A stretch of DNA of 64,000 nt from Bacteroidota bacterium (GTDB lineage: Bacteria > Bacteroidota > Ignavibacteria > Ignavibacteriales > Ignavibacteriaceae), in assembly GCA_022564295.1 (NCBI GenBank), contig JADFLR010000015.1, positions 1-64,000 on the forward strand. Reading direction: 5' to 3'. The notes below the pieces were generated by a model. The model was not told the DNA's origin. It worked only from the letters and a program-made list of their open reading frames with translations, and did not search any database. Positions 52,836 through 64,000 of the stretch are shown here, piece by piece. The translations under genes and the position numbers were made by a program. Every line of letters starts with the position of its first letter. Position 1 is the stretch's first letter.

Positions 52836-52917
52836 GTGCCAGTCACTTCCAAAGTGACTGGCACACTATTACCTGCCCTTTTAGAACTGCCATATTTTTA
52901 AAATATGGCAGTTCTAA
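52836..52917. repeat. Two perfect hairpins, REP-like, downstream of the first giant gene
   Basis: GTGCCAGTCACTT-CCA-AAGTGACTGGCAC at 52836-52864 and a 17-base stem TTAGAACTGCCATATTT with AAATATGGCAGTTCTAA around TTA at 52881-52917. A degenerate copy of the first and an exact core of the second recur at 58895-58993 after the second giant gene. No T run follows, so they are not ordinary terminators. Confidence 0.75.
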
Positions 52918-53020
52918 TTCATAAATAAACCCGAATCCGGCAGTGATATTACTTACCATTTTACCGCAACACACAATCATTGATTTGATAGTGCCGGTAA
53001 CTGTATCATAGGCAGCAATT

Positions 53021-53893
53021 TCACTCCTTCTCTTTCTCCTTCTCCAGCGGCGGCAATTGTATCGTTGTTACGTAAAACGTTATCTCACAAGGAGGACACT
53101 CTTTATTTCCACAGATAGGTTGAATAATCAAAGTATAGTCTCCATACTTCGAAGCCCTAAAATTAACATTGATGTTCTTTCCACTTCCCCCCTTTATCAG
53201 AGCACCTAACGGATCGGTTAATTCCCATGTATATTCAGCTAAACAGTTTGCATCTCCTGTGCAAGTAAAGTCTCCGGTAAAATTGATAATACTGATCCTT
53301 TGGCCTTGAGTAAACAGCCTTACTGTTTCACCGCAAATTGCCGAACCAGGAAATATAGGTTTTCGAGGGCCGCCGATTATGTAATCAACTCGGAGAGGAT
53401 GCGTCCATTCGCCGCATTCGCAAATACCAGGTCTTACTGGCTTGCACTTGCCCAAACTGTCAGCATACCATATATCAAACACCTCATCTGGTGTAAGCAC
53501 AAGATTGAAGAGTTCGATTTCGTCAATACGGCCGTTGAAGAACCACCAGAAAAGGTCGTGCACTCCAGTGCGAGTCGCCCCGATTCGCAACTGTTCAGGA
53601 TTTGTGAGGCTACCTTGGCGGTCTGTGGGATCCAAGTCAGGACCGTGAGGTGCGCCATTGACGTAGAAACGCAGTCCTGTCGGGTCATCCCGGTCTACCG
53701 AGACCGCCACGTGAAGCCACCGACCGGTGGGCATGATAGGTCCAACAGGTGAGTGGTACCATGTGAAGGAGGGGAGGCCCACACCATTGGCCAGGACTAG
53801 GGCAAGATTCCCATCGTGGATGAAGAAGTAGTAGCCGACTTTTCCGTTCCACTTGGCCACGATGGGTGCATCGTGGCGGTCGAGATCATCCCA
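53021..53893 (-). CDS. C-terminal part of giant Cys-rich secreted protein A, after an in-frame TGA
   Basis: This frame is continuous with the gene at 53894-58609; only the TGA at 53894-53896 separates them. It completes a LamG/concanavalin A-like lectin domain (WFFNGRIDEIELFNLVL, RFYVNGAPHG, WLHVAVSVD), then ends in one Cys-rich module (CECGEWTHPLRVDY to CPPCEITFYV). A reading from GTG at 53858-53860 would give 279 residues without a signal peptide. The LamG part is visibly richer in G+C than the flanks. Either a recent nonsense mutation, a sequencing error, or a natural break. Confidence 0.7.
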   Translation of the reverse strand, partial: WDDLDRHDAPIVAKWNGKVGYYFFIHDGNLALVLANGVGLPSFTWYHSPVGPIMPTGRWLHVAVSVDRDDPTGLRFYVNGAPHGPDLDPTDRQGSLTNPEQLRIGATRTGVHDLFWWFFNGRIDEIELFNLVLTPDEVFDIWYADSLGKCKPVRPGICECGEWTHPLRVDYIIGGPRKPIFPGSAICGETVRLFTQGQRISIINFTGDFTCTGDANCLAEYTWELTDPLGALIKGGSGKNINVNFRASKYGDYTLIIQPICGNKECPPCEITFYVTTIQLPPLEKEKEKE

Positions 53894-56800
53894 TCATATC
53901 CAGGCGTCGATAGAGAAGTCCCCAACTCCGAAGTCTAACTCCGGATGGTCTGCAACTTCCACGTAATCAGTCGTGCCACCAAAGCTTAATCCTCCAGCCA
54001 CCTTGCCTGGTACAGGCATAGGATTGTCAACATGTTTGCCCACATTGTTGAACCCAGCAATATCATTAGCAGTTGTACCGGATTCATCCAACGACCACCA
54101 GGCAACCATATCCAACGGCGGAGGCAAACAGTCTGTTACCTCTGCTATTTCAAAAATTATCACGCAATTATCACACAATGTACTGCCGCAAAAAACCGTT
54201 ATTTGTACCTTATATTCGCCGGGAATTAAAGGGATAAAATCAATCGAAAGAACGCTGCCAGCATCTGTGTTACCGTTCGGATCGGTTATTAACCATTCGT
54301 ATGTAGGTGGGCAGTCTTCAGTTACACAATTATATTCTCCGGTAATATTGATTGTAGTGCCGACAGTAATATCACTTACTGTTTCACCGCAAGTTAAAGC
54401 TGTAGTATCAGTAGTGCCGTCAAGTGTGTAAACGACTTGGAGAGAATCCGTCCATTCACCGCATTCACAAGTATCTGCTACCTCAACTACCTCAACAATA
54501 CATACTTTATCAATATGCCCACCAGAGAGTGAATCATCTAATTCAAATTCATTTGTCACACTGATCGTTATAAAATTATAATCAGCATCTGCTGTCCAAG
54601 GCGGTAAAGTTACAGTAGTCCAGTTATCCGCATCAGTTATTTTCCCTGTTACACCTATTACTGCACAGCCTCCTGGGCAACTCTCATTACCTAACGGACC
54701 CATAGATGCGCGGACTTCAAATTGTACATAGTCTAGTCTCTGTCTGTTTCTTCTTACACATAGAGTTACTTCATACGTATTACCCTTTACAATAGGAATA
54801 GCAAGTTTTTGCCGGATTGCTTCACCTGTCGCTTTATTTCCCCACATAGATATCCAACCATTATCACAACACCCACCTTTGAGGCGTAACTGTGGAGTAC
54901 GATAAGCTGCGTGCCAACGACCAACTTGGCCATTATAATCCATTGATCCATCACCACTCACAACATTCCCATCAATAAAACTCCAATTATCAATAATATT
55001 ATTCTCACACAAGATATCACATGGAGAGATCTCATAACAAATCAGAGTATCACAGGTTACACAATTTTCATCAGTAAACTCATACCGGATGCAAAATTCT
55101 ATAGTTTGCTCGCAACAAGATATTGGGGATGGAGGTGGAAATTTAAGCAGAATTTCCGGTGAAAATCCTCCTGTTAGATCAACCGAACCATCATCTTCCA
55201 AATCTTGCCATATTACCTCACGGCTCCAATTAATATTTAAGTTTGTAGGACCTGTAAGAACAGGAGTTAGTGTTGTGCCGCCTTCGGTAAATACCTGTTC
55301 GGTATCAACAGAAAGATTACCATATTGTTCACTATTCTCCGCACAAACTTCACATTCCGGATTATTGTAAGAAATGTTTACGTATTCAAGGGTTGCTGAA
55401 AATTTTGTGATATTGTTTGGTCCAACAATCAATTCAGGTATTATTTGATATATCCCATCACCAAGATCGCTGATCTCGTCCTGAGTCACATTTATATCAA
55501 ATTCATCACAGCATTCACCACCGGGGGAAATACATTCCACAAAGAATTCAATAACGATAGAATCACAAAGTTCACCGCACCAGCCAAACAAAGTAAGAGT
55601 GTAGATGCCGCTTTGTACCGGAATAAACGAAAAGGGAACGTTATCAACTGTTAGGTCTCCTAATGGATCTACCAAATTATAGGTAACAGGTTCGTTGCAA
55701 TCTTGCGGTTGACAATTATAAGTAGAATTGATGGTATAGGTCTGGTTGCAGTCGAGTGTATCCTGTGTATCAGGGTTCATCAACAGTATTGGTGAATTTA
55801 GTTGAGTGATATTCCGGATAGTATTTTCTCCCCATCTGCTTTCTATACAGTCGCAGGTATCTCCTAATAGTGAATCGATCGGGCCAACGCGGAATATGTA
55901 ATACTCCCTCGATTCATCGGCGGGAAATCTTGGGTGGTACATTCCTGTCTCAAATGGTATCGTAATGTTGTCTGGTGGATCGGGTTTAGGATTATACCAC
56001 ATCCACTGAGCTGCGGGGGTAATACCGTCAACGACCGGGAAGGGAGTTCCAGGAATTCCAGGAAAGTTGTCGGGACCGAAAACCAACACTCCAACACGAT
56101 TATCAGGATCATGGGTAGTGTTTACCCATCCTCTACTTGTAGTAGAGGGGTTTCCGCCATTTGAATTTGCTATATCAATTTGATTATTAATAGCGTTAAC
56201 AGGTAAGGGACCATCAAGGAGTGGAGCATTGGAGTTACCTCTCGGTTCCCAGCCATTTGAGGATGACGGCTCCTGATCACTTGTCGTCGGGTATAAATTT
56301 TCGCCCGTAGCATATACTTCCCAATTAACATCAGGATCGGGAAGTGTAGGACTAGTCAGTACTGTTGTATTTCCATCAGTGAACTCCGCAATTACGCCTT
56401 GCCATGCACTTTCATCACTCCATGCGGCTATATAAATATATCCGCCTGTAAAATTTGCAGGTATAGTATAAGTCTCTGTCCCGCTATTTGCGTTTAAAAT
56501 TTCACCAGGGGATAGATTACAAACACCCGGATATTTATAATCGTTAATTCCATTAATGTCTCCAAAGCCATATACGTAAGCGTTATCCGACGTTATAGTA
56601 ACGGTTACATGTGATGAAGGTGGAGGAATTAAAAATCCTACATCACCAGCATCGGTTTCCGGTAGTATTCCATCCGGTGAGTCTGAATCAAATTGTCCGC
56701 TCCATCCACCATTGTAAGCGAGGAGTGATGTCGAGCGTAATCTCGCGCCACCTGATAGATCTGTGCTATTTCCTGTGGGCACGATTACGCTATAGGTGGG

Positions 56801-58609
56801 ATAATCAGTAGTCTTTCCTAAATTTAATCCAAATTCATCTAGTGCCGACCCTGTCAACTCGCCGAACCATGAATTATCCGTATCGGTCGTACCCATTGCC
56901 AGCAAAACGTTGCGTATTCCTAAGTTATTTTCGTACAAGTCGCGCAATGTGTTGGATACAATAGTGACATTGTCGCTTGTACGCTCAATTGTAATGCATA
57001 CAAGCGTATCGCATGTTACACACAAACTATCGGTAAAGGAAAAACGAATGCACAACTCTATTGTGTCCGGACAGCACCAAAGAGTTGAAGCAGGTCGGAG
57101 TCCTAATTGCATATTCAATTCTGCACCACCTGATAAGTCACTTCCGTCCGCCGACGTAGACAACCACGTAACCTCGCGGCTGCATTGGCCTAGTTCCGGT
57201 AGCGTTGTAAACACCGGTGCGTCAAAACCAGGTAGATTATTTGCCACACAGAAGTTGCCCCATTGCTCGCTCTCCTTAACGCAGGTTTTGCAATCTGGAT
57301 TGCCGGGAGTGACAGAGAAGTATACCAGCTCAGCAGTAACTTTTATGATCGGATTTGGACCGGCAGTAATGTTAGTTGTTAAAAAACCGGTTGAGTCATA
57401 AGAAAAGAGATCCACTTCCCGTGTGAAGCCACCGCAGCAGGTGCAAGCTGGAAGTTCATTTACATATTCTGTGGTCTTGGAATCGTGGTCATCGGGGTTA
57501 CCCTGATCCCGCATTGAAACGCGGAACTTGAGTGGGGGGAGGATAGCGTCGGTGTAACAAACGGTTCCCGTTATCGTCATTTGATCGCCGTATAGGAGGT
57601 CGACTGGAAGTAATGGGAAAACGTTGGTAACCGTACCGGGGGGATCCACTCCCAGCAGGTAAACCTCTCCAACACTTCCTATCCCATTGGGAGGATCGGG
57701 AGCCATATTGTTGCTAACCCAAACTATGAAGTCATAACAAATGCCAACGCTATCACTGCACGTTACCTTAACCGAATCGATCGTGGGAGTATACTCTACA
57801 CCAACAGAAAACAGCCACACCTCACTTTCACCTATTTGATCTCCTGAGGGATTGTACGCTATAACTTGCCATGCGTACTTTCCTTTTGAAAATTCTATGG
57901 CAGAGACAGGAATCTGGAACACTGTAGTATTTATATTACCTTGTTCAAACACGATAAGATTATTTCGCATTGCAATGTATGGATCTTCACGATCGTTTAT
58001 CTGAACTATCTCTATTTTATAATTGACACCAGTGCCAGGTGTTCCAGCAAGCATCCAGGTAAACACCGTTGTTTTATTCACTGAAGTCGCTCCTTCAAGC
58101 GGTGAAATGAGTTCTAGTGCCGACACAAGCTCAATACTTTGCTCTTTACAATCAGAAGCAATTTCTTCATTGTTAGTAACCAGCCGGACGTAAACGCAAT
58201 ACGTATAATACCCATCAGGAAACACGCCTGTTCTCAATATGCCATCTTTATACCTCGGATCTGGATTTATATAATCAATCTGCGGAACTAACCACCCGTA
58301 GTCTGCACCAGTTAATTTTCTTACTCCGGGGGTTAATTCAAATGCAGTGGAAGTTCCGTTTGCTATCGGACCATCTTCTCTTTCCTCTAGTGTAGCATAT
58401 AAATAAACCAATAGTGTTTCCTGTGTTGTATTATTTATATTTAAACTCCAGAGATTTTGCATATAAAGTTGATTATATGCAGCAGGATCAAGATTAACCT
58501 GAACCTGCTGAGCAAATATTTGATTTATGAGTAGAGTTTGAATTACTAAAACACAAAAAACCAGGAAGGGTTTGTACCACTTGATCTTATGTAAAAATAT
58601 TGTTTGCAT
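53894..58609 (-). CDS. Giant Cys-rich modular secreted protein A (N-terminal 1571 residues)
   Basis: Signal peptide to about residue 33 (LINQIFAQ). An N-terminal domain (about 35-165, NLDPAAYNQLYMQN to YYTYCVYVRL) resembles the TANFOR-type surface domain, followed by an Fn3-like domain (about 170-270). A Cys-rich module with CVTCDTLVC follows, then a Gly/Pro/Asn-rich region, a Cys-rich beta module (CDCIESRWGENTI), a second CVTCDTL module, a CBM-like segment (NNIIDNWSFIDG), another Cys-rich beta module (CECGEWTDSLQV) and the start of a LamG domain. Probably surface-exposed or secreted; no sorting domain is seen. Ends at an in-frame TGA, see the entry for 53021-53893. Paralogue of the gene at 59106. 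Confidence 0.82.
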   Translation of the reverse strand: MQTIFLHKIKWYKPFLVFCVLVIQTLLINQIFAQQVQVNLDPAAYNQLYMQNLWSLNINNTTQETLLVYLYATLEEREDGPIANGTSTAFELTPGVRKLTGADYGWLVPQIDYINPDPRYKDGILRTGVFPDGYYTYCVYVRLVTNNEEIASDCKEQSIELVSALELISPLEGATSVNKTTVFTWMLAGTPGTGVNYKIEIVQINDREDPYIAMRNNLIVFEQGNINTTVFQIPVSAIEFSKGKYAWQVIAYNPSGDQIGESEVWLFSVGVEYTPTIDSVKVTCSDSVGICYDFIVWVSNNMAPDPPNGIGSVGEVYLLGVDPPGTVTNVFPLLPVDLLYGDQMTITGTVCYTDAILPPLKFRVSMRDQGNPDDHDSKTTEYVNELPACTCCGGFTREVDLFSYDSTGFLTTNITAGPNPIIKVTAELVYFSVTPGNPDCKTCVKESEQWGNFCVANNLPGFDAPVFTTLPELGQCSREVTWLSTSADGSDLSGGAELNMQLGLRPASTLWCCPDTIELCIRFSFTDSLCVTCDTLVCITIERTSDNVTIVSNTLRDLYENNLGIRNVLLAMGTTDTDNSWFGELTGSALDEFGLNLGKTTDYPTYSVIVPTGNSTDLSGGARLRSTSLLAYNGGWSGQFDSDSPDGILPETDAGDVGFLIPPPSSHVTVTITSDNAYVYGFGDINGINDYKYPGVCNLSPGEILNANSGTETYTIPANFTGGYIYIAAWSDESAWQGVIAEFTDGNTTVLTSPTLPDPDVNWEVYATGENLYPTTSDQEPSSSNGWEPRGNSNAPLLDGPLPVNAINNQIDIANSNGGNPSTTSRGWVNTTHDPDNRVGVLVFGPDNFPGIPGTPFPVVDGITPAAQWMWYNPKPDPPDNITIPFETGMYHPRFPADESREYYIFRVGPIDSLLGDTCDCIESRWGENTIRNITQLNSPILLMNPDTQDTLDCNQTYTINSTYNCQPQDCNEPVTYNLVDPLGDLTVDNVPFSFIPVQSGIYTLTLFGWCGELCDSIVIEFFVECISPGGECCDEFDINVTQDEISDLGDGIYQIIPELIVGPNNITKFSATLEYVNISYNNPECEVCAENSEQYGNLSVDTEQVFTEGGTTLTPVLTGPTNLNINWSREVIWQDLEDDGSVDLTGGFSPEILLKFPPPSPISCCEQTIEFCIRYEFTDENCVTCDTLICYEISPCDILCENNIIDNWSFIDGNVVSGDGSMDYNGQVGRWHAAYRTPQLRLKGGCCDNGWISMWGNKATGEAIRQKLAIPIVKGNTYEVTLCVRRNRQRLDYVQFEVRASMGPLGNESCPGGCAVIGVTGKITDADNWTTVTLPPWTADADYNFITISVTNEFELDDSLSGGHIDKVCIVEVVEVADTCECGEWTDSLQVVYTLDGTTDTTALTCGETVSDITVGTTINITGEYNCVTEDCPPTYEWLITDPNGNTDAGSVLSIDFIPLIPGEYKVQITVFCGSTLCDNCVIIFEIAEVTDCLPPPLDMVAWWSLDESGTTANDIAGFNNVGKHVDNPMPVPGKVAGGLSFGGTTDYVEVADHPELDFGVGDFSIDAWI

Positions 58610-59105
58610 TGTGAATCAACTCCTATATTATTTTTAAGTACTTTCTAATGGAGACTTCTGAGGAATAACATTTTGACAATTCTGTCATTTTGAACCTGCC
58701 CGTCCGGCAGGCGGGTTTATTTCAAAATCTCACAAAAGATGCTGAAATGAATTCAGCATGACTAAGATGATTGAATTTAATCTTAAAACCTTCTACATCT
58801 CTTCTTATTCCCGGAGCACCAAGTGATACATAGCCCGGTCCCGCCAAATGCGGGCAAAGGCTTTCCTCTTTCGAGGAGAAATTATTTAATCCGTACCAGG
58901 TGCTAGTCACTTTGGAAGTGACTGGGACTTGGTGAATGGCACATTATATACTGCCCTTTTAGAACTGCCATATTTTTAAAATATGGCAGTTCTTATACTT
59001 AAAAAAACTCCGAATGCGCCAGTGATATCACTTACCATTACATCACAGTCCACAATCATTTATTTGATAGTGCCGGTAACGGTATCATAGGCAACATTTT
59101 CAATC
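58610..59105. repeat. Repeat-rich region between the two giant paralogues
   Basis: It holds the upstream region of giant gene A, a unit related to the dispersed repeat (GTCATTTTGAA near 58684 with TTCAGCATGAC near 58751) containing the GC palindrome CCTGCCCGTCCGGCAGGCGGG, and duplicates of the two hairpins after gene A (58895-58933 and 58961-58993). From about 58935 to 59100 it aligns with 52860-53020. No gene seen. Confidence 0.65.
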
Positions 59106-62100
59106 CTAGCGTGGCAACCCTCGCTTTAATACGTCAAACGTTATCACACAGGGAGGACACTCTTCACTTCCACAGATAGGTTGAATAATCAAAGTATAGT
59201 CTCCAGTCATCGAAGCCCTAAAAGCAGCATTGATGTTCTTTCCATTTCCCGTTTCTATCAGATTACCTTCCGGATCGAGAATACGCCACACGTATTCAGC
59301 TATACAACTTCCAGTTCCTGTGCAAATAAAGTCTCCAATAAAAATGTCAATATTGATAGTAGTACCGAAAGGAATGTCCTTTACCGTTTCTCCACAAGTT
59401 GCAAAACCAGTAGTGGGGGGGCCAACGCCGCTTAGTTCGTAATCAACTTGGGAAGGATCCGTCCATTCGCCGCATTCGCACAAGCTATCGCATGGCGGTA
59501 GCGGCAGACAGTAGACTATCTCACACATTTTAGTTCCTTGCCTGCAAATGATCCGCAGACAGAACGGATCGTTTGCCGGAACCCAGTCCGACAACTGTCC
59601 CGTTACTACGGTCGTCCCCGGCGGCAGCGATAAGGGTGACACACCGGATATGTTCCCGGAGCTAGGGATTTGCGGCACGATCTGCAGGTTACATTGCTGA
59701 CCGGTCAGGTTGTTCAGCTCGAACGTAAACCTATATCTCTTGTTCTGTCCTTGGGGCTCCAGGCATATCACCGAAGCCTGTAACACGGTAACACAGGGTT
59801 GGGTTGCTGCCGAATCCACCTCGACAAAGATCCGGACTGAATCGCACCACATCGTCCCACACCATCCCAGCACTGTGACTGTGTACGTTCCTGCTTTAGT
59901 AGGCGTGATCTCGATCGGAATCGACGTCCCCCAACCCGAAGTAGGACCAGTGTATCTCCAATCATATTCAGGTGGGCAGTCTTCAGGTACGCATTTCAGG
60001 TTTGGAGTTATGGTGATAGTCTGTGGAGCTATCACTCCCGTCACCGTCCCGTCGTCCCACACTTTGATGGTCGTAGCGTCAAATGTTACTTTGGTTGAAT
60101 CCCACGTGCTGCACTGGCATGTACCGCTGGGAGTGCACCTTATGACAGTGATGTCGCGCGTCGCCGTACAGCTGTCATTGGATACTGTGATCGTGTACGT
60201 GCACGGTGGTGTGATGCCAGAGTTTGAGATACTGATGAAGCCCGGTGAAGCACTAAAATTTCCTGCGTAGTCCGGACAGCCTGTTTGTCCTGAGGTTAGC
60301 TGCCACGTGTAGGGACCATTCCCGGGGAAGCCGCTTAATACGATGTTGTCGATAGTCAGGTTGTTCAGTGAATCGAGACACACTGTATCCGGGGCAGCAA
60401 TGCTGCAGGTATCATCTGGAGGAACGATCTCATAACAAATCAGAGTATCGCAGGTTACACAATTTTCATCTGTAAATTCATACCGGATGCAAAATTCTAT
60501 AGTTTGCACGCAACAGGATATTGGGGATGGAGGTGGAAATTTAAGCTGAATTTCCGGTGAAAATCCTCCTGTTAGATCAACCGAACCATCATCTCCCCAA
60601 TCTTGCCATATTACCTCACGGCTCCAATTAATATCTAAGTTTGGAGGACCTGTAAGAGCAGGTGTTAGTGTTGTGCCTCCTTCGGTAAATACCTGTCCGG
60701 GATCTACAGAAAGATTACCAAATTGATCGCTATTATCCGCACAAACTTCACACTCCGGATCATTGTAAGATACATGAACGTATTCAAGTGTTGCTGAAAT
60801 TTTTGTGATTTTGTTTGGTCCCGCAATCAATTCGGGTATTATTTGATATATCCCACCACCAAGATCGGTGATCTCGTCCTGAGTCACATTTATATCAAAT
60901 TCATCACAGCATTCACCGTCAGGGGAAATACATTCCACTAAGAATTCAACAACGATAGAATCACAAAGTTCTTCGGTACCGCACCAGCCAAACAAAGTAA
61001 GAGTGTAGGTGCCGCTTTGTACTGGAGTAAACGAAAAGGGCACATTACCATTTGCTGTTATTGGTCCTACCAAAGTATATTTAACAGGTACGTTGCAATC
61101 TGGAGGTTGACAATTATAAGTAGAGTTAATGGTATAGGTCTGGTTGCATTCAAGTGTGTCCTGTGTATCAGGGTTCATCAACAGTATGGGTGAATTGAGT
61201 TGAGTGATATTCTGGATCGTATTTTCTCCCCAGCTGCTTCCTTTACAGTTGCAGGTATCTACAACACAGCACTTAATGAAAAATTTGGGGCCATAATACC
61301 AGCATGATTTATTTACATCTTCTACATAGAATTGCCACTCCTCCATCGGATTACAAGGAATGTCAGAAGGTATTACCCAGTCATAGCTGCCCGTATTCGG
61401 AATATTTGGAGCGAACTGTTGATATGTTGTCCAGTTACTTATTCTGATTAAACTTAAATTAACGTAGTCGCTGGGAACAGTTCCTGTCCACGTTATAGTC
61501 ACCTGCGCACCAGCACATAAAGTATCACCAGTTTGAGGACCACCAGTTATTATGTAATCACAAGGACACGATACAACATCTACATAAGTATCAGCCGTAC
61601 AACCTCCTCTTGATACTCTTAAAATATAACGGCACGGGGGTGTGACAATGAAACTAGATATACTTATGAACCCCAATGGAATATCGAAAGTACCAGCCCC
61701 ACCCGGACAGACGGATGGAGATTGATTGACCGGATCGGGAATCAATTCCCATGAATATGATCCGCTTCCAGGAAAACCATTCGCTATTATGTTATCAATT
61801 ATTAATCTATCATAAGCACCCATGCATACGGAGTCAGGTGCATCTATGGAACAGGTATCTAGAACAGCATAAATACAAACCTTGGGACCGTATGTGTACT
61901 CCTCTTTTGGGTTGTCTTTGTTGTAGATGTAAAGATTGAACTCACAATCTTCGTCGAAGGGAAGGGTCGAGGGGATGGTCCAAAAGATTGTTTGTACACT
62001 ATTATTGTGTTCTATCGCTATGGGGGGATTTACATTTCTCCAGGTTGGAGTTAACTTTTGCAAGTTGAGATTAACCAGCCAACTTGGTAAGCCGCCTGTC

Positions 62101-64000
62101 CACGAAATCTCCATCACATCTCCGGCATACCAAACTGACCCGGGAGCAGGTAATGTAAACACGAACGGTCCAGCCATCATATTTGAATTCGAAATTTCAT
62201 ACCTGGATTGTTCAACTGAACTGAAGTTAGCGAATCGGAATACGCTTTCGGTGTCGTTAGCACCTCCTCCGGCGTTCTTGCTCAAGGTAAAAAATTCAAC
62301 GGGATCAGACTGAGTTTCCGATCGTATTCCGTCCGGTGAGTCTGAAACAATTGGTCCGCTCCATCCACCATTGTATTCGAAGAGTGGTGTCGAGCGTAAT
62401 CTCGAACCACCCGATAGATCTGTGCTATTTCCTTTGGGTACGTTTACACTATAGGTGGTATAATCAGTAGTCTTTCCTAAATTTAATCCAAATTCATTTA
62501 GTGCCGACCCTGTCAGCTCGCCGAACCATGAATTATCCGTATCAGTCGTACCCATTGCCAGCAAAACGTTGCGCACTCCTAAGTTATTTTCGTACAAGTC
62601 GTGCAATGTGTTGGATACAATATTGACTGCGTCGCTTGTTCGCTCAATTGTAATGCATACAAGCGTATCGCACGTTACACACAAATTATCGGTAAAGGAA
62701 ATACGAATGCACAACCGTATTGTGTCCGGACAGCACCAAAGAGTTGAAGCCGGTGGAAACCCTGTTTGCATATTCAATTCTGCACCCATTGATAAGTCAC
62801 TTCCGTCCGTGGATGTAGATAACCACGTAACCTCTCGGCTGCATTGGCTTAGCCCCGGTAACGTTGTAAACACCGGGGCGTCAAAACCAGGTATATTATC
62901 TGCCGCACAGAAGTTGCCCCACTGCTCGCTCTCCTTAACGCAGGTATTGCAATCTGGATTGCCGCGAATGACAGAGAAGTAAACCAGCTCAGCAGTAACT
63001 TTTATGATCGGATTTGGACCGGCAGTAATGTTAGTTGTTAAAAAACCGGTTGAGTCATAAGAAAAGAGATCCACTTCCCGTGTGAAGCCACCGCAGCAGG
63101 TGCAAGCTGGAAGTTCATTTACATATTCTGTGGTCTTGGAATCGTGGTCATCGGGGTTACCCTGATCCCGCATTGAAACGCGGAACTTGAGTGGGGGGAG
63201 GATAGCGTCGGTGTAACAAACGGTTCCCGTTATCGTCATTTGATCGCCGTATAGGAGGTCGACTGGAAGTAATGGGAAAACGTTGGTAACCGTACCGGGG
63301 GGATCCACTCCCAGCAGGTAAACCTCTCCAACACTTCCTATCCCATTGGGAGGATCGGGAGCCATGTTGTTGCTAACCCAAACTATGAAGTCATAACAAA
63401 TGCCAACGCTATCACTGCACGTTACCTTAACCGAATCGATCGTGGGAGTATACTCTACACCAACAGAAAAACTCCACACATCACTTTCACCTAACTTATT
63501 TCCTGAGGGATCGTACGCTATAACTTGCCATGCGTACTTTCCTTCTAAAAATTCTATGGCAGAGACAGGAATCTGGAACACTGTAGTATTTATATTACCT
63601 TGTTCAAACACGATAAGATTATTTCGCATTGCAATGTATGGATCTTCACGATCGTTTATCTGAACTATCTCTATTTTATAATTGACACCAGTGCCAGGTG
63701 TTACAGCATGCATCCAGGTAAACACCGGAGTTTTATTCACTAAAGTAGCTCCATTATATGGTGCAATGAGTTCTGGTGCCGCCATCATCTCAATAGTTTG
63801 ATCCATGCAATCATCACCAATATCAATATTGTTACTCATCAGCCGGACGTAAACGCAATACGTATAATCCCCTGCAGGAAATACGCCCGTTCTCATTATG
63901 CCATCTTTATATCTCGGATCTGAACTTATATAATCAATCTCCGGATTTAACCACGAGTAGTCTGCACCAGTAAATGTTCTTAATCCGGGGAGTAATTGAA
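59106..64000 (-). CDS. Giant Cys-rich modular secreted protein B, 5' end outside the window
   Basis: The frame stays open to base 64000 and matches the N-terminal domain of protein A upstream of an internal Met at 63896, so the true start lies outside. Visible order: end of the N-terminal domain, Fn3-like domain, CVTCDTLVC module, a Ser/Thr-rich stretch, GPI-anchored-type beta modules (GSVWYAGDVMEISWTG, GAQVTITWTGTVP), Cys-rich beta module (CNCKGSSWGENTI), second CVTCDTL module, Cys-rich modules CQCSTWDSTKVTF and CECGEWTDPSQVDY. It lacks LamG. Exported function and ligand unknown. Confidence 0.82.
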   Translation of the reverse strand, partial: QLLPGLRTFTGADYSWLNPEIDYISSDPRYKDGIMRTGVFPAGDYTYCVYVRLMSNNIDIGDDCMDQTIEMMAAPELIAPYNGATLVNKTPVFTWMHAVTPGTGVNYKIEIVQINDREDPYIAMRNNLIVFEQGNINTTVFQIPVSAIEFLEGKYAWQVIAYDPSGNKLGESDVWSFSVGVEYTPTIDSVKVTCSDSVGICYDFIVWVSNNMAPDPPNGIGSVGEVYLLGVDPPGTVTNVFPLLPVDLLYGDQMTITGTVCYTDAILPPLKFRVSMRDQGNPDDHDSKTTEYVNELPACTCCGGFTREVDLFSYDSTGFLTTNITAGPNPIIKVTAELVYFSVIRGNPDCNTCVKESEQWGNFCAADNIPGFDAPVFTTLPGLSQCSREVTWLSTSTDGSDLSMGAELNMQTGFPPASTLWCCPDTIRLCIRISFTDNLCVTCDTLVCITIERTSDAVNIVSNTLHDLYENNLGVRNVLLAMGTTDTDNSWFGELTGSALNEFGLNLGKTTDYTTYSVNVPKGNSTDLSGGSRLRSTPLFEYNGGWSGPIVSDSPDGIRSETQSDPVEFFTLSKNAGGGANDTESVFRFANFSSVEQSRYEISNSNMMAGPFVFTLPAPGSVWYAGDVMEISWTGGLPSWLVNLNLQKLTPTWRNVNPPIAIEHNNSVQTIFWTIPSTLPFDEDCEFNLYIYNKDNPKEEYTYGPKVCIYAVLDTCSIDAPDSVCMGAYDRLIIDNIIANGFPGSGSYSWELIPDPVNQSPSVCPGGAGTFDIPLGFISISSFIVTPPCRYILRVSRGGCTADTYVDVVSCPCDYIITGGPQTGDTLCAGAQVTITWTGTVPSDYVNLSLIRISNWTTYQQFAPNIPNTGSYDWVIPSDIPCNPMEEWQFYVEDVNKSCWYYGPKFFIKCCVVDTCNCKGSSWGENTIQNITQLNSPILLMNPDTQDTLECNQTYTINSTYNCQPPDCNVPVKYTLVGPITANGNVPFSFTPVQSGTYTLTLFGWCGTEELCDSIVVEFLVECISPDGECCDEFDINVTQDEITDLGGGIYQIIPELIAGPNKITKISATLEYVHVSYNDPECEVCADNSDQFGNLSVDPGQVFTEGGTTLTPALTGPPNLDINWSREVIWQDWGDDGSVDLTGGFSPEIQLKFPPPSPISCCVQTIEFCIRYEFTDENCVTCDTLICYEIVPPDDTCSIAAPDTVCLDSLNNLTIDNIVLSGFPGNGPYTWQLTSGQTGCPDYAGNFSASPGFISISNSGITPPCTYTITVSNDSCTATRDITVIRCTPSGTCQCSTWDSTKVTFDATTIKVWDDGTVTGVIAPQTITITPNLKCVPEDCPPEYDWRYTGPTSGWGTSIPIEITPTKAGTYTVTVLGWCGTMWCDSVRIFVEVDSAATQPCVTVLQASVICLEPQGQNKRYRFTFELNNLTGQQCNLQIVPQIPSSGNISGVSPLSLPPGTTVVTGQLSDWVPANDPFCLRIICRQGTKMCEIVYCLPLPPCDSLCECGEWTDPSQVDYELSGVGPPTTGFATCGETVKDIPFGTTINIDIFIGDFICTGTGSCIAEYVWRILDPEGNLIETGNGKNINAAFRASMTGDYTLIIQPICGSEECPPCVITFDVLKRGLPR

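What the first reader, a model, noticed from the sequence alone, without database searches (positions are those of the whole stretch)
53021..64000. Tandem giant Cys-rich surface proteins with shuffled modules
Two paralogues of more than 1,600 residues sit in tandem. They share the N-terminal domain, an Fn3-like domain and two module types, but their middles differ: copy A has a CBM-like segment and LamG, copy B has beta modules with the pattern WYAGD...ISWTG. This is modular exchange in a surface protein family. I know no named system with this combination.
Basis: partly seen in the sequence, partly recalled or inferred. Interest (0 to 1): 0.7.

Follow-up and report, generated by a model that had tools for sequence, protein, structure and literature searches.

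The report
TANFOR-type giant surface proteins beside barrel
Two giant, cysteine-rich, probably surface-displayed proteins of an Ignavibacteria-type bacterium have swapped modules between tandem copies, and they belong to a wider unit in which such proteins are encoded next to a large outer-membrane barrel that carries the same start domain, which makes that barrel a candidate anchor or exit for a class of bacterial proteins whose route out of the cell is unknown.

Summary
Genes A (53021-58609) and B (59106 to contig position 64265, past the window edge) are paralogues: collinear blocks of about 90% nucleotide identity alternate with unrelated segments. Two corrections: A contains an in-frame TGA inside its LamG domain, and B is 1719 aa. 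A 79-nt piece of the upstream gene C lies between B and A, so a C+giant cassette was probably duplicated and then lost its second C. The shared N-terminal domain is homologous to TANFOR (profile-profile probability 99.2, E 2e-19), the N-terminal domain of Bacteroidetes polymorphic toxins; it is followed by Fn3. C has the same TANFOR-Fn3 start fused to a predicted ~26-strand outer-membrane barrel without a Pfam or NCBIfam family. Barrel-plus-TANFOR-cargo units recur across Ignavibacteria. Barrel homologues also lie near 12 of 20 TANFOR genes elsewhere in the phylum (0 of 8 control windows). No toxin domain was found in A or B; they carry LamG, Kre9-type and Cys-rich beta modules. Most likely they are adhesin/receptor-type TANFOR cargo displayed by, or through, the barrel. 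The barrel's role is inferred. New variant of a known kind; the barrel link appears unreported in the papers I could search.

The parts
53021..58609 (-). Gene A: giant Cys-rich protein, 1862 codons read through one in-frame TGA
53894..53896 (-). In-frame TGA (ATA TGA TGG) inside the LamG domain of A; the frame stays open for 290 further codons
58130..58507 (-). A: N-terminal domain, TANFOR superfamily (after a signal peptide, aa 1-34)
   Evidence: predicted Ig-like beta-sandwich, high pLDDT
57794..58129 (-). A: Fn3-like domain
   Evidence: fold match Z 11.1 over 102 residues
57446..57793 (-). A: linker module X, 100% protein and 99.7% nucleotide identity to B (gene-conversion-like tract)
56987..57445 (-). 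A: Cys module M1, first copy
55856..56662 (-). A-specific middle segment, no family found
55532..55855 (-). A: Cys module M2, first copy
55028..55513 (-). A: Cys module M1, second copy
54470..55027 (-). A-specific CBM_4_9-like segment (sub-threshold)
   Evidence: PF02018 E 0.15; the same family above its cut-off in cargo of other loci
54146..54469 (-). A: Cys module M2, second copy
53495..54112 (-). A: LamG (Laminin_G_3) domain interrupted by the TGA; partly GC-rich (GC3 up to 68% against 28% for local genes)
53069..53422 (-). A: Cys module M2, third (C-terminal) copy, downstream of the TGA
59106..64000 (-). Gene B: giant Cys-rich protein (1719 aa; its start lies 265 nt beyond the window)
62646..63104 (-). 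B: Cys module M1, first copy
61884..62150 (-). B: Kre9_KNH Ig-like domain 1 (WYAGD...ISWTG)
   Evidence: PF10342 3.5e-5
61281..61538 (-). B: Kre9_KNH Ig-like domain 2
   Evidence: PF10342 4.1e-9
60930..61253 (-). B: Cys module M2, first copy
60426..60911 (-). B: Cys module M1, second copy
59817..60119 (-). B: Cys module M2, second copy
59130..59480 (-). B: Cys module M2, third (C-terminal) copy
58768..58846 (-). 79-nt remnant of barrel gene C (97.5% identical to C nt 2081-2159) between B and A
52854..52930 (.). Hairpin-containing sequence after A, 88% identical to the one after B
58932..59008 (.). Hairpin-containing sequence after B

Best explanation
A and B are Sec-exported, surface-displayed adhesin/receptor-type proteins of the TANFOR superfamily. 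They are the cargo of a two-part unit whose other part is C, the gene just upstream: the same TANFOR-Fn3 pair fused to a predicted ~26-strand outer-membrane beta-barrel. Shown by sequence: homology, gene adjacency, recurrence of the unit, duplication with barrel remnant, segmental replacement. Inferred: TANFOR-Fn3 of cargo and barrel dock to each other or to one common partner in the periplasm; the wide barrel then anchors, or lets through, the train of compact disulphide-stabilised Ig-like modules; the variable modules (LamG, CBM-like, Kre9/Ig, Cys-rich) bind glycans or surfaces. Tandem duplication, module replacement and gene conversion then vary the exposed part while the docking end is kept.
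For: TANFOR homology: hhalign 99.2%, E 2e-19 over 157 columns; unrelated controls near 1%. NTD+Fn3 query matches in 46 of 146 related genomes (a few of these are matches to other parts of B). NTD-Fn3-barrel proteins beside same-strand NTD proteins in most of the 24 named Ignavibacteria-group loci, including Cys-rich ones with M1 or M2 (L121, L124, L125, L134, L137). All M1 hits in 146 genomes lie at such loci. Barrel HMM hits within 19-kb windows around 12 of 20 TANFOR genes across the phylum, and a second, Fn3-rich partner (cl1) at 17 of 20; 0 of 8 control windows. Barrel NTDs and cargo NTDs form two groups with correlated distances (Mantel r 0.68, 0 of 5000 permutations), so the pair is inherited together. 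Barrel model: ~26 strands; best match MtrB, 26 strands, Z 18.7 over 440 residues; ushers FimD/PapC Z 14-15. SprA present; three T9SS-CTD proteins directly upstream. Precedent: SprF-SprB and PorP-PG1035, barrels that hold surface proteins (PMC9143113).
Against: No direct evidence of export, surface location or binding. Barrel and cargo NTDs in one locus are no closer to each other than those of different loci (0.70 v 0.70), so homotypic docking is not specially supported. The correlated distances can follow from linkage alone. The barrel model is of moderate confidence (pLDDT 72, pTM 0.50) and was made on a 58%-identical relative. The companion cl1 is absent here as a full-length gene. A has a premature stop, and dN is about equal to dS in the N-terminal region (0.115 v 0.091), which could mean relaxed constraint.
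Confidence: 0.5

Rival explanations
1. A and B are T9SS substrates in the ordinary way: SprA exports them, and the barrel is only a PorP/SprF-like surface anchor, or unrelated.
For: SprA in the genome, T9SS-CTD neighbours, PMC7073777 proposes T9SS export of TANFOR proteins, PorP/SprF precedent.
Against: No type A sorting domain or other T9SS sorting model hits A or B. The barrel has no meaningful NCBIfam hit, so none to the PorP/SprF models there.
Confidence: 0.35
2. A and B are polymorphic toxins, as TANFOR proteins were proposed to be, with an unrecognised toxin module.
For: TANFOR homology; TANFOR proteins often end in toxin domains (PMC7073777); other loci of the family carry a Peptidase C13-like neighbour.
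Against: No toxin domain found. Both end in the repeated M2 module, not in a variable tip. No immunity-like gene downstream: the next gene on that side is a UvrD-type helicase on the other strand (from its sequence).
Confidence: 0.08
3. The barrel is an MtrB-like electron conduit and the Cys-rich proteins are redox partners.
For: MtrB is the best fold match (Z 18.7).
Against: No CXXCH haem motif in A or B, and no ORF with two or more on the whole 85.7-kb contig. Ushers and other large barrels score well too.
Confidence: 0.03
4. A is a decaying pseudogene and the pair is a relic of duplication; only B works.
For: In-frame TGA; weaker conservation of the module after it (aa identity 0.61, dN about equal to dS).
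Against: No other stop or frameshift in 1862 codons; a base-call error or recent mutation fits as well. The truncated product still keeps all modules up to LamG.
Confidence: 0.2

Closest known systems
TANFOR-domain polymorphic toxins of Bacteroidetes (TIGR02542; Jana, Salomon, Bosis 2020, PMC7073777)
   Same: Signal peptide, homologous N-terminal domain followed by Fn3, very long proteins, T9SS-bearing genome, T9SS-CTD neighbours
   Different: Below the TIGR02542 cut-off, no toxin domain or immunity gene, Cys-rich and LamG/Kre9/CBM-like modules instead, and a barrel partner with the same N-terminal domain
SprB-SprF and type B CTD proteins with PorP-like barrels (PMC9143113)
   Same: Adhesin-like surface protein that goes with an outer-membrane barrel
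   Different: No recognised T9SS sorting domain in A or B; the barrel is larger, unrelated by NCBIfam models, and carries its own TANFOR-Fn3
Chaperone-usher pilus ushers (FimD, PapC)
   Same: Very wide outer-membrane barrel beside Ig-like cargo
   Different: No chaperone gene seen, no pilin signature seen, no sequence similarity
MtrB of the MtrCAB complex
   Same: Best fold match of the barrel, 26 strands (PMC7198977)
   Different: No multihaem cytochrome genes on the contig

Membership tests
TANFOR-domain proteins | N-terminal TANFOR domain | tested here: met
   Homology by profile-profile comparison, 99.2%, E 2e-19, whole domain. The curated TIGR02542 cut-off is not reached in this genome, nor by any of the Flavobacterium hits used.
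TANFOR-domain proteins | Sec signal peptide | tested here: met
   Hydrophobic N-terminus ending IFAQ/VFAQ by reading; helix at residues 12-31 in the model. No signal-peptide program was available.
TANFOR polymorphic toxins | C-terminal (or downstream) toxin domain | tested here: not met
   None in Pfam or NCBIfam scans of A, B and their segments
TANFOR polymorphic toxins | Downstream immunity gene | tested here: not met
   Next gene after A is on the opposite strand and UvrD-type by its sequence; after B comes A
T9SS substrates (type A CTD) | C-terminal sorting domain TIGR04183 | tested here: not met
   Absent in A and B, present in three upstream neighbours
PorP/SprF barrels (for gene C) | Match to the NCBIfam models | tested here: not met
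   No such hit for C or for related barrels
MtrB porin-cytochrome | Companion multihaem cytochromes | tested here: not met
   No ORF with two or more CXXCH on the contig
Fimbrial ushers (for gene C) | Usher fold with plug and usher sequence family | tested here: inconclusive
   Fold match Z 14-15 over 347-385 residues; no Pfam usher hit

The most novel reading that the evidence does not exclude
TANFOR proteins throughout Bacteroidota have a dedicated outer-membrane partner, a ~26-strand barrel (in Ignavibacteria itself TANFOR-tagged), that exports or displays them independently of, or as an extension of, the type IX system; the Cys-rich pair is an adhesin branch of this two-partner system.
Probability: 0.3. 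Interest if true: 0.85.

Novelty: new variant of a known kind. Interest (0 to 1): 0.55.

Why it matters
How TANFOR proteins leave the cell is open; the 2020 study could only hypothesise T9SS export. A conserved barrel beside them, and fused to the same domain in one lineage, gives a single gene to delete or co-purify, so the question becomes testable. It also shows that TANFOR carries adhesin-like cargo as well as toxins, and gives a clear case of surface-protein diversification by duplication, module replacement and gene conversion.

Tried and rejected
Sequence search of PDB with C, B and the family profiles: no usable hit. Pfam/NCBIfam for the barrel and for the N-terminal domain: nothing above cut-off. 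TIGR02542 in the own genome: none; its curated cut-off was not reached in any genome searched, so it is a poor detector here. Haem motifs: none. Canonical unit with cl1 in the own genome: only partial Fn3 matches. LamG donor among plasmids: no match. Fold search of the A model gave only Ig/Fn3 matches; the fold of M1 was not searched alone, so nothing is claimed about its novelty. Literature searches for a barrel linked to TANFOR found only PMC7073777; only open-licence PMC papers are held.

Full report
OBSERVATION. On the minus strand lie gene A (53021-58609) and gene B (59106 to 64265 of the contig, 265 nt beyond the window). A is 1571 aa, then a TGA at 53894-53896 in the middle of a LamG domain, then 290 more open codons in the same frame. 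It is a nonsense codon, not a frameshift; sequencing error, recent mutation and read-through cannot be told apart here. At DNA level A and B alternate between blocks of about 90-92% identity and unrelated segments, with sharp edges. Within the first block 383 nt are identical, far beyond what the spread of mismatches allows (0 of 2000 random placements), which is what gene conversion leaves. LamG is PF13385 and the WYAGD...ISWTG modules are PF10342 (Kre9_KNH) domains. M1 (about 155-160 aa, CC...C..C core) occurs twice, and M2 (about 110 aa) three times, in each protein.

ORIGIN OF THE PAIR. Upstream of B lies gene C (947 aa, contig 64635-67478), which starts with the same signal-peptide region, N-terminal domain and Fn3 as A and B and continues as a beta-barrel. 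A 79-nt piece of C, 97.5% identical, lies in the B-A intergenic region (58768-58846; E 2e-35), and the 35 nt just before the A and B start codons match at 94%. The simplest reading is duplication of a C+giant cassette followed by loss of the second C. The A and B region has higher GC (about 44%) than neighbouring genes (35.6 +/- 3.5%); part of A's LamG and B aa 1300-1580 reach GC3 of 50-72% against 28% for local genes, which suggests that some modules are of foreign origin.

WHAT THE N-TERMINAL DOMAIN IS. A profile built on relatives finds the domain at the N-terminus of proteins of 260-4070 aa throughout the related families. One relative matches TIGR02542, TANFOR, below cut-off. Compared with an alignment of TIGR02542-detected domains from other classes of the phylum, the profile gives 99.2% probability, E 2e-19, over 157 columns, while two unrelated alignments give about 1%. 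TANFOR is the N-terminal domain of a class of polymorphic toxins of Bacteroidetes, often followed by Fn3, and proposed but not shown to be exported by T9SS (PMC7073777). The structure model shows an Ig-like sandwich followed by Fn3, both with high confidence.

THE UNIT. In 24 named loci of Ignavibacteria and related MAGs, including the isolate Stygiobacter electus, NTD-Fn3-barrel proteins of about 850-1400 aa sit beside same-strand NTD proteins at most loci. Two broad kinds of cargo occur: Cys-poor giants of about 1600 aa together with a ~720-aa Fn3-rich protein (cl1), and Cys-rich proteins, some with M1 or M2 (L121, L124, L125, L134, L137). A and B are of the second kind. In 146 related genomes M1 occurs in four, always at such a locus; M2 is rarer and in one genome lies on another contig. 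Outside this lineage, at 20 loci found by TIGR02542 alone, the barrel HMM hits in 12 and the cl1 HMM in 17; 8 control windows of the same size from some of the same genomes have neither. Some loci share a genome and some windows are cut by flank length, so these are counts, not rates. A tree of the N-terminal domains puts barrels in one group and cargo in another (the one exception is a barrel gene cut by a contig end), with correlated distances (Mantel r 0.68). This shows that the pair is inherited together; linkage alone can produce it.

THE BARREL. No Pfam or NCBIfam family. The model of a 58%-identical relative has about 26 strands, with a long helical insertion after strand 4. The best fold match is MtrB (Z 18.7, 440 residues), then a broad group that includes the ushers FimD and PapC. 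MtrB itself has 26 strands and the size of LptD and FimD (PMC7198977). There are no multihaem ORFs on the contig, so the common denominator is a very wide barrel, not electron transfer. An even strand number would put both ends, and so C's TANFOR-Fn3, in the periplasm (inference).

MECHANISM. Best supported: A and B are exported by Sec and displayed on the surface as adhesin- or receptor-type TANFOR cargo, with the barrel as anchor or exit. Homology, adjacency, recurrence and rearrangement history are shown; export, docking and ligand binding are inferred. The rival that T9SS exports them and the barrel only anchors them, as SprF does for SprB (PMC9143113), is nearly as likely: SprA is present and three neighbours carry T9SS sorting domains, but A and B have none that can be recognised.

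NOVELTY. TANFOR proteins and modular adhesins are known kinds. New, as far as the searched literature goes, are the Cys-rich adhesin-like branch, the fusion of TANFOR-Fn3 to an outer-membrane barrel, and the barrel as a neighbour of TANFOR genes in several classes of the phylum.

Noticed in passing
window 58768-58846: 79-nt remnant of the upstream barrel gene between B and A, a footprint of cassette duplication and loss.
   Followed up: yes
window 53495-54112 and B aa 1300-1580 (about 59526-60368): GC3 of 50-72% in these module stretches against about 28% in local genes; possible horizontally acquired modules. A plasmid search for the LamG gave no donor.
   Followed up: partly
window 52854-52930 and 58932-59008: Near-identical perfect hairpins (AGAACTGCCATATTTTTAAAATATGGCAGTTCT) after both genes, each near a second hairpin (AGTCACTTCCAAAGTGACT); terminator-like or a small repeat element.
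   Followed up: no
L120:6991-9135 and L136:6198-8639: Peptidase C13 / caspase-like proteins (PF01650, 7e-7 and 4e-8) next to a short TANFOR-like protein and the barrel; a different kind of partner for the same unit.
   Followed up: no
L138:6689-12880 (same region as L069): Tandem partial duplication of cl1 and barrel: a 711-aa barrel copy that breaks off, followed by an intact 953-aa copy with the same N-terminus.
   Followed up: no
L131:2528-7741, L135:1122-7106, L078:3532-5490: Cargo proteins with two or three tandem TANFOR-like domains.
   Followed up: no
window 57794-58609 (A aa 1-272, against B aa 1-271): dN (0.115) is slightly above dS (0.091) in the shared N-terminal region, while the next 116 codons are almost identical; diversification or a conversion artefact.
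   Followed up: partly
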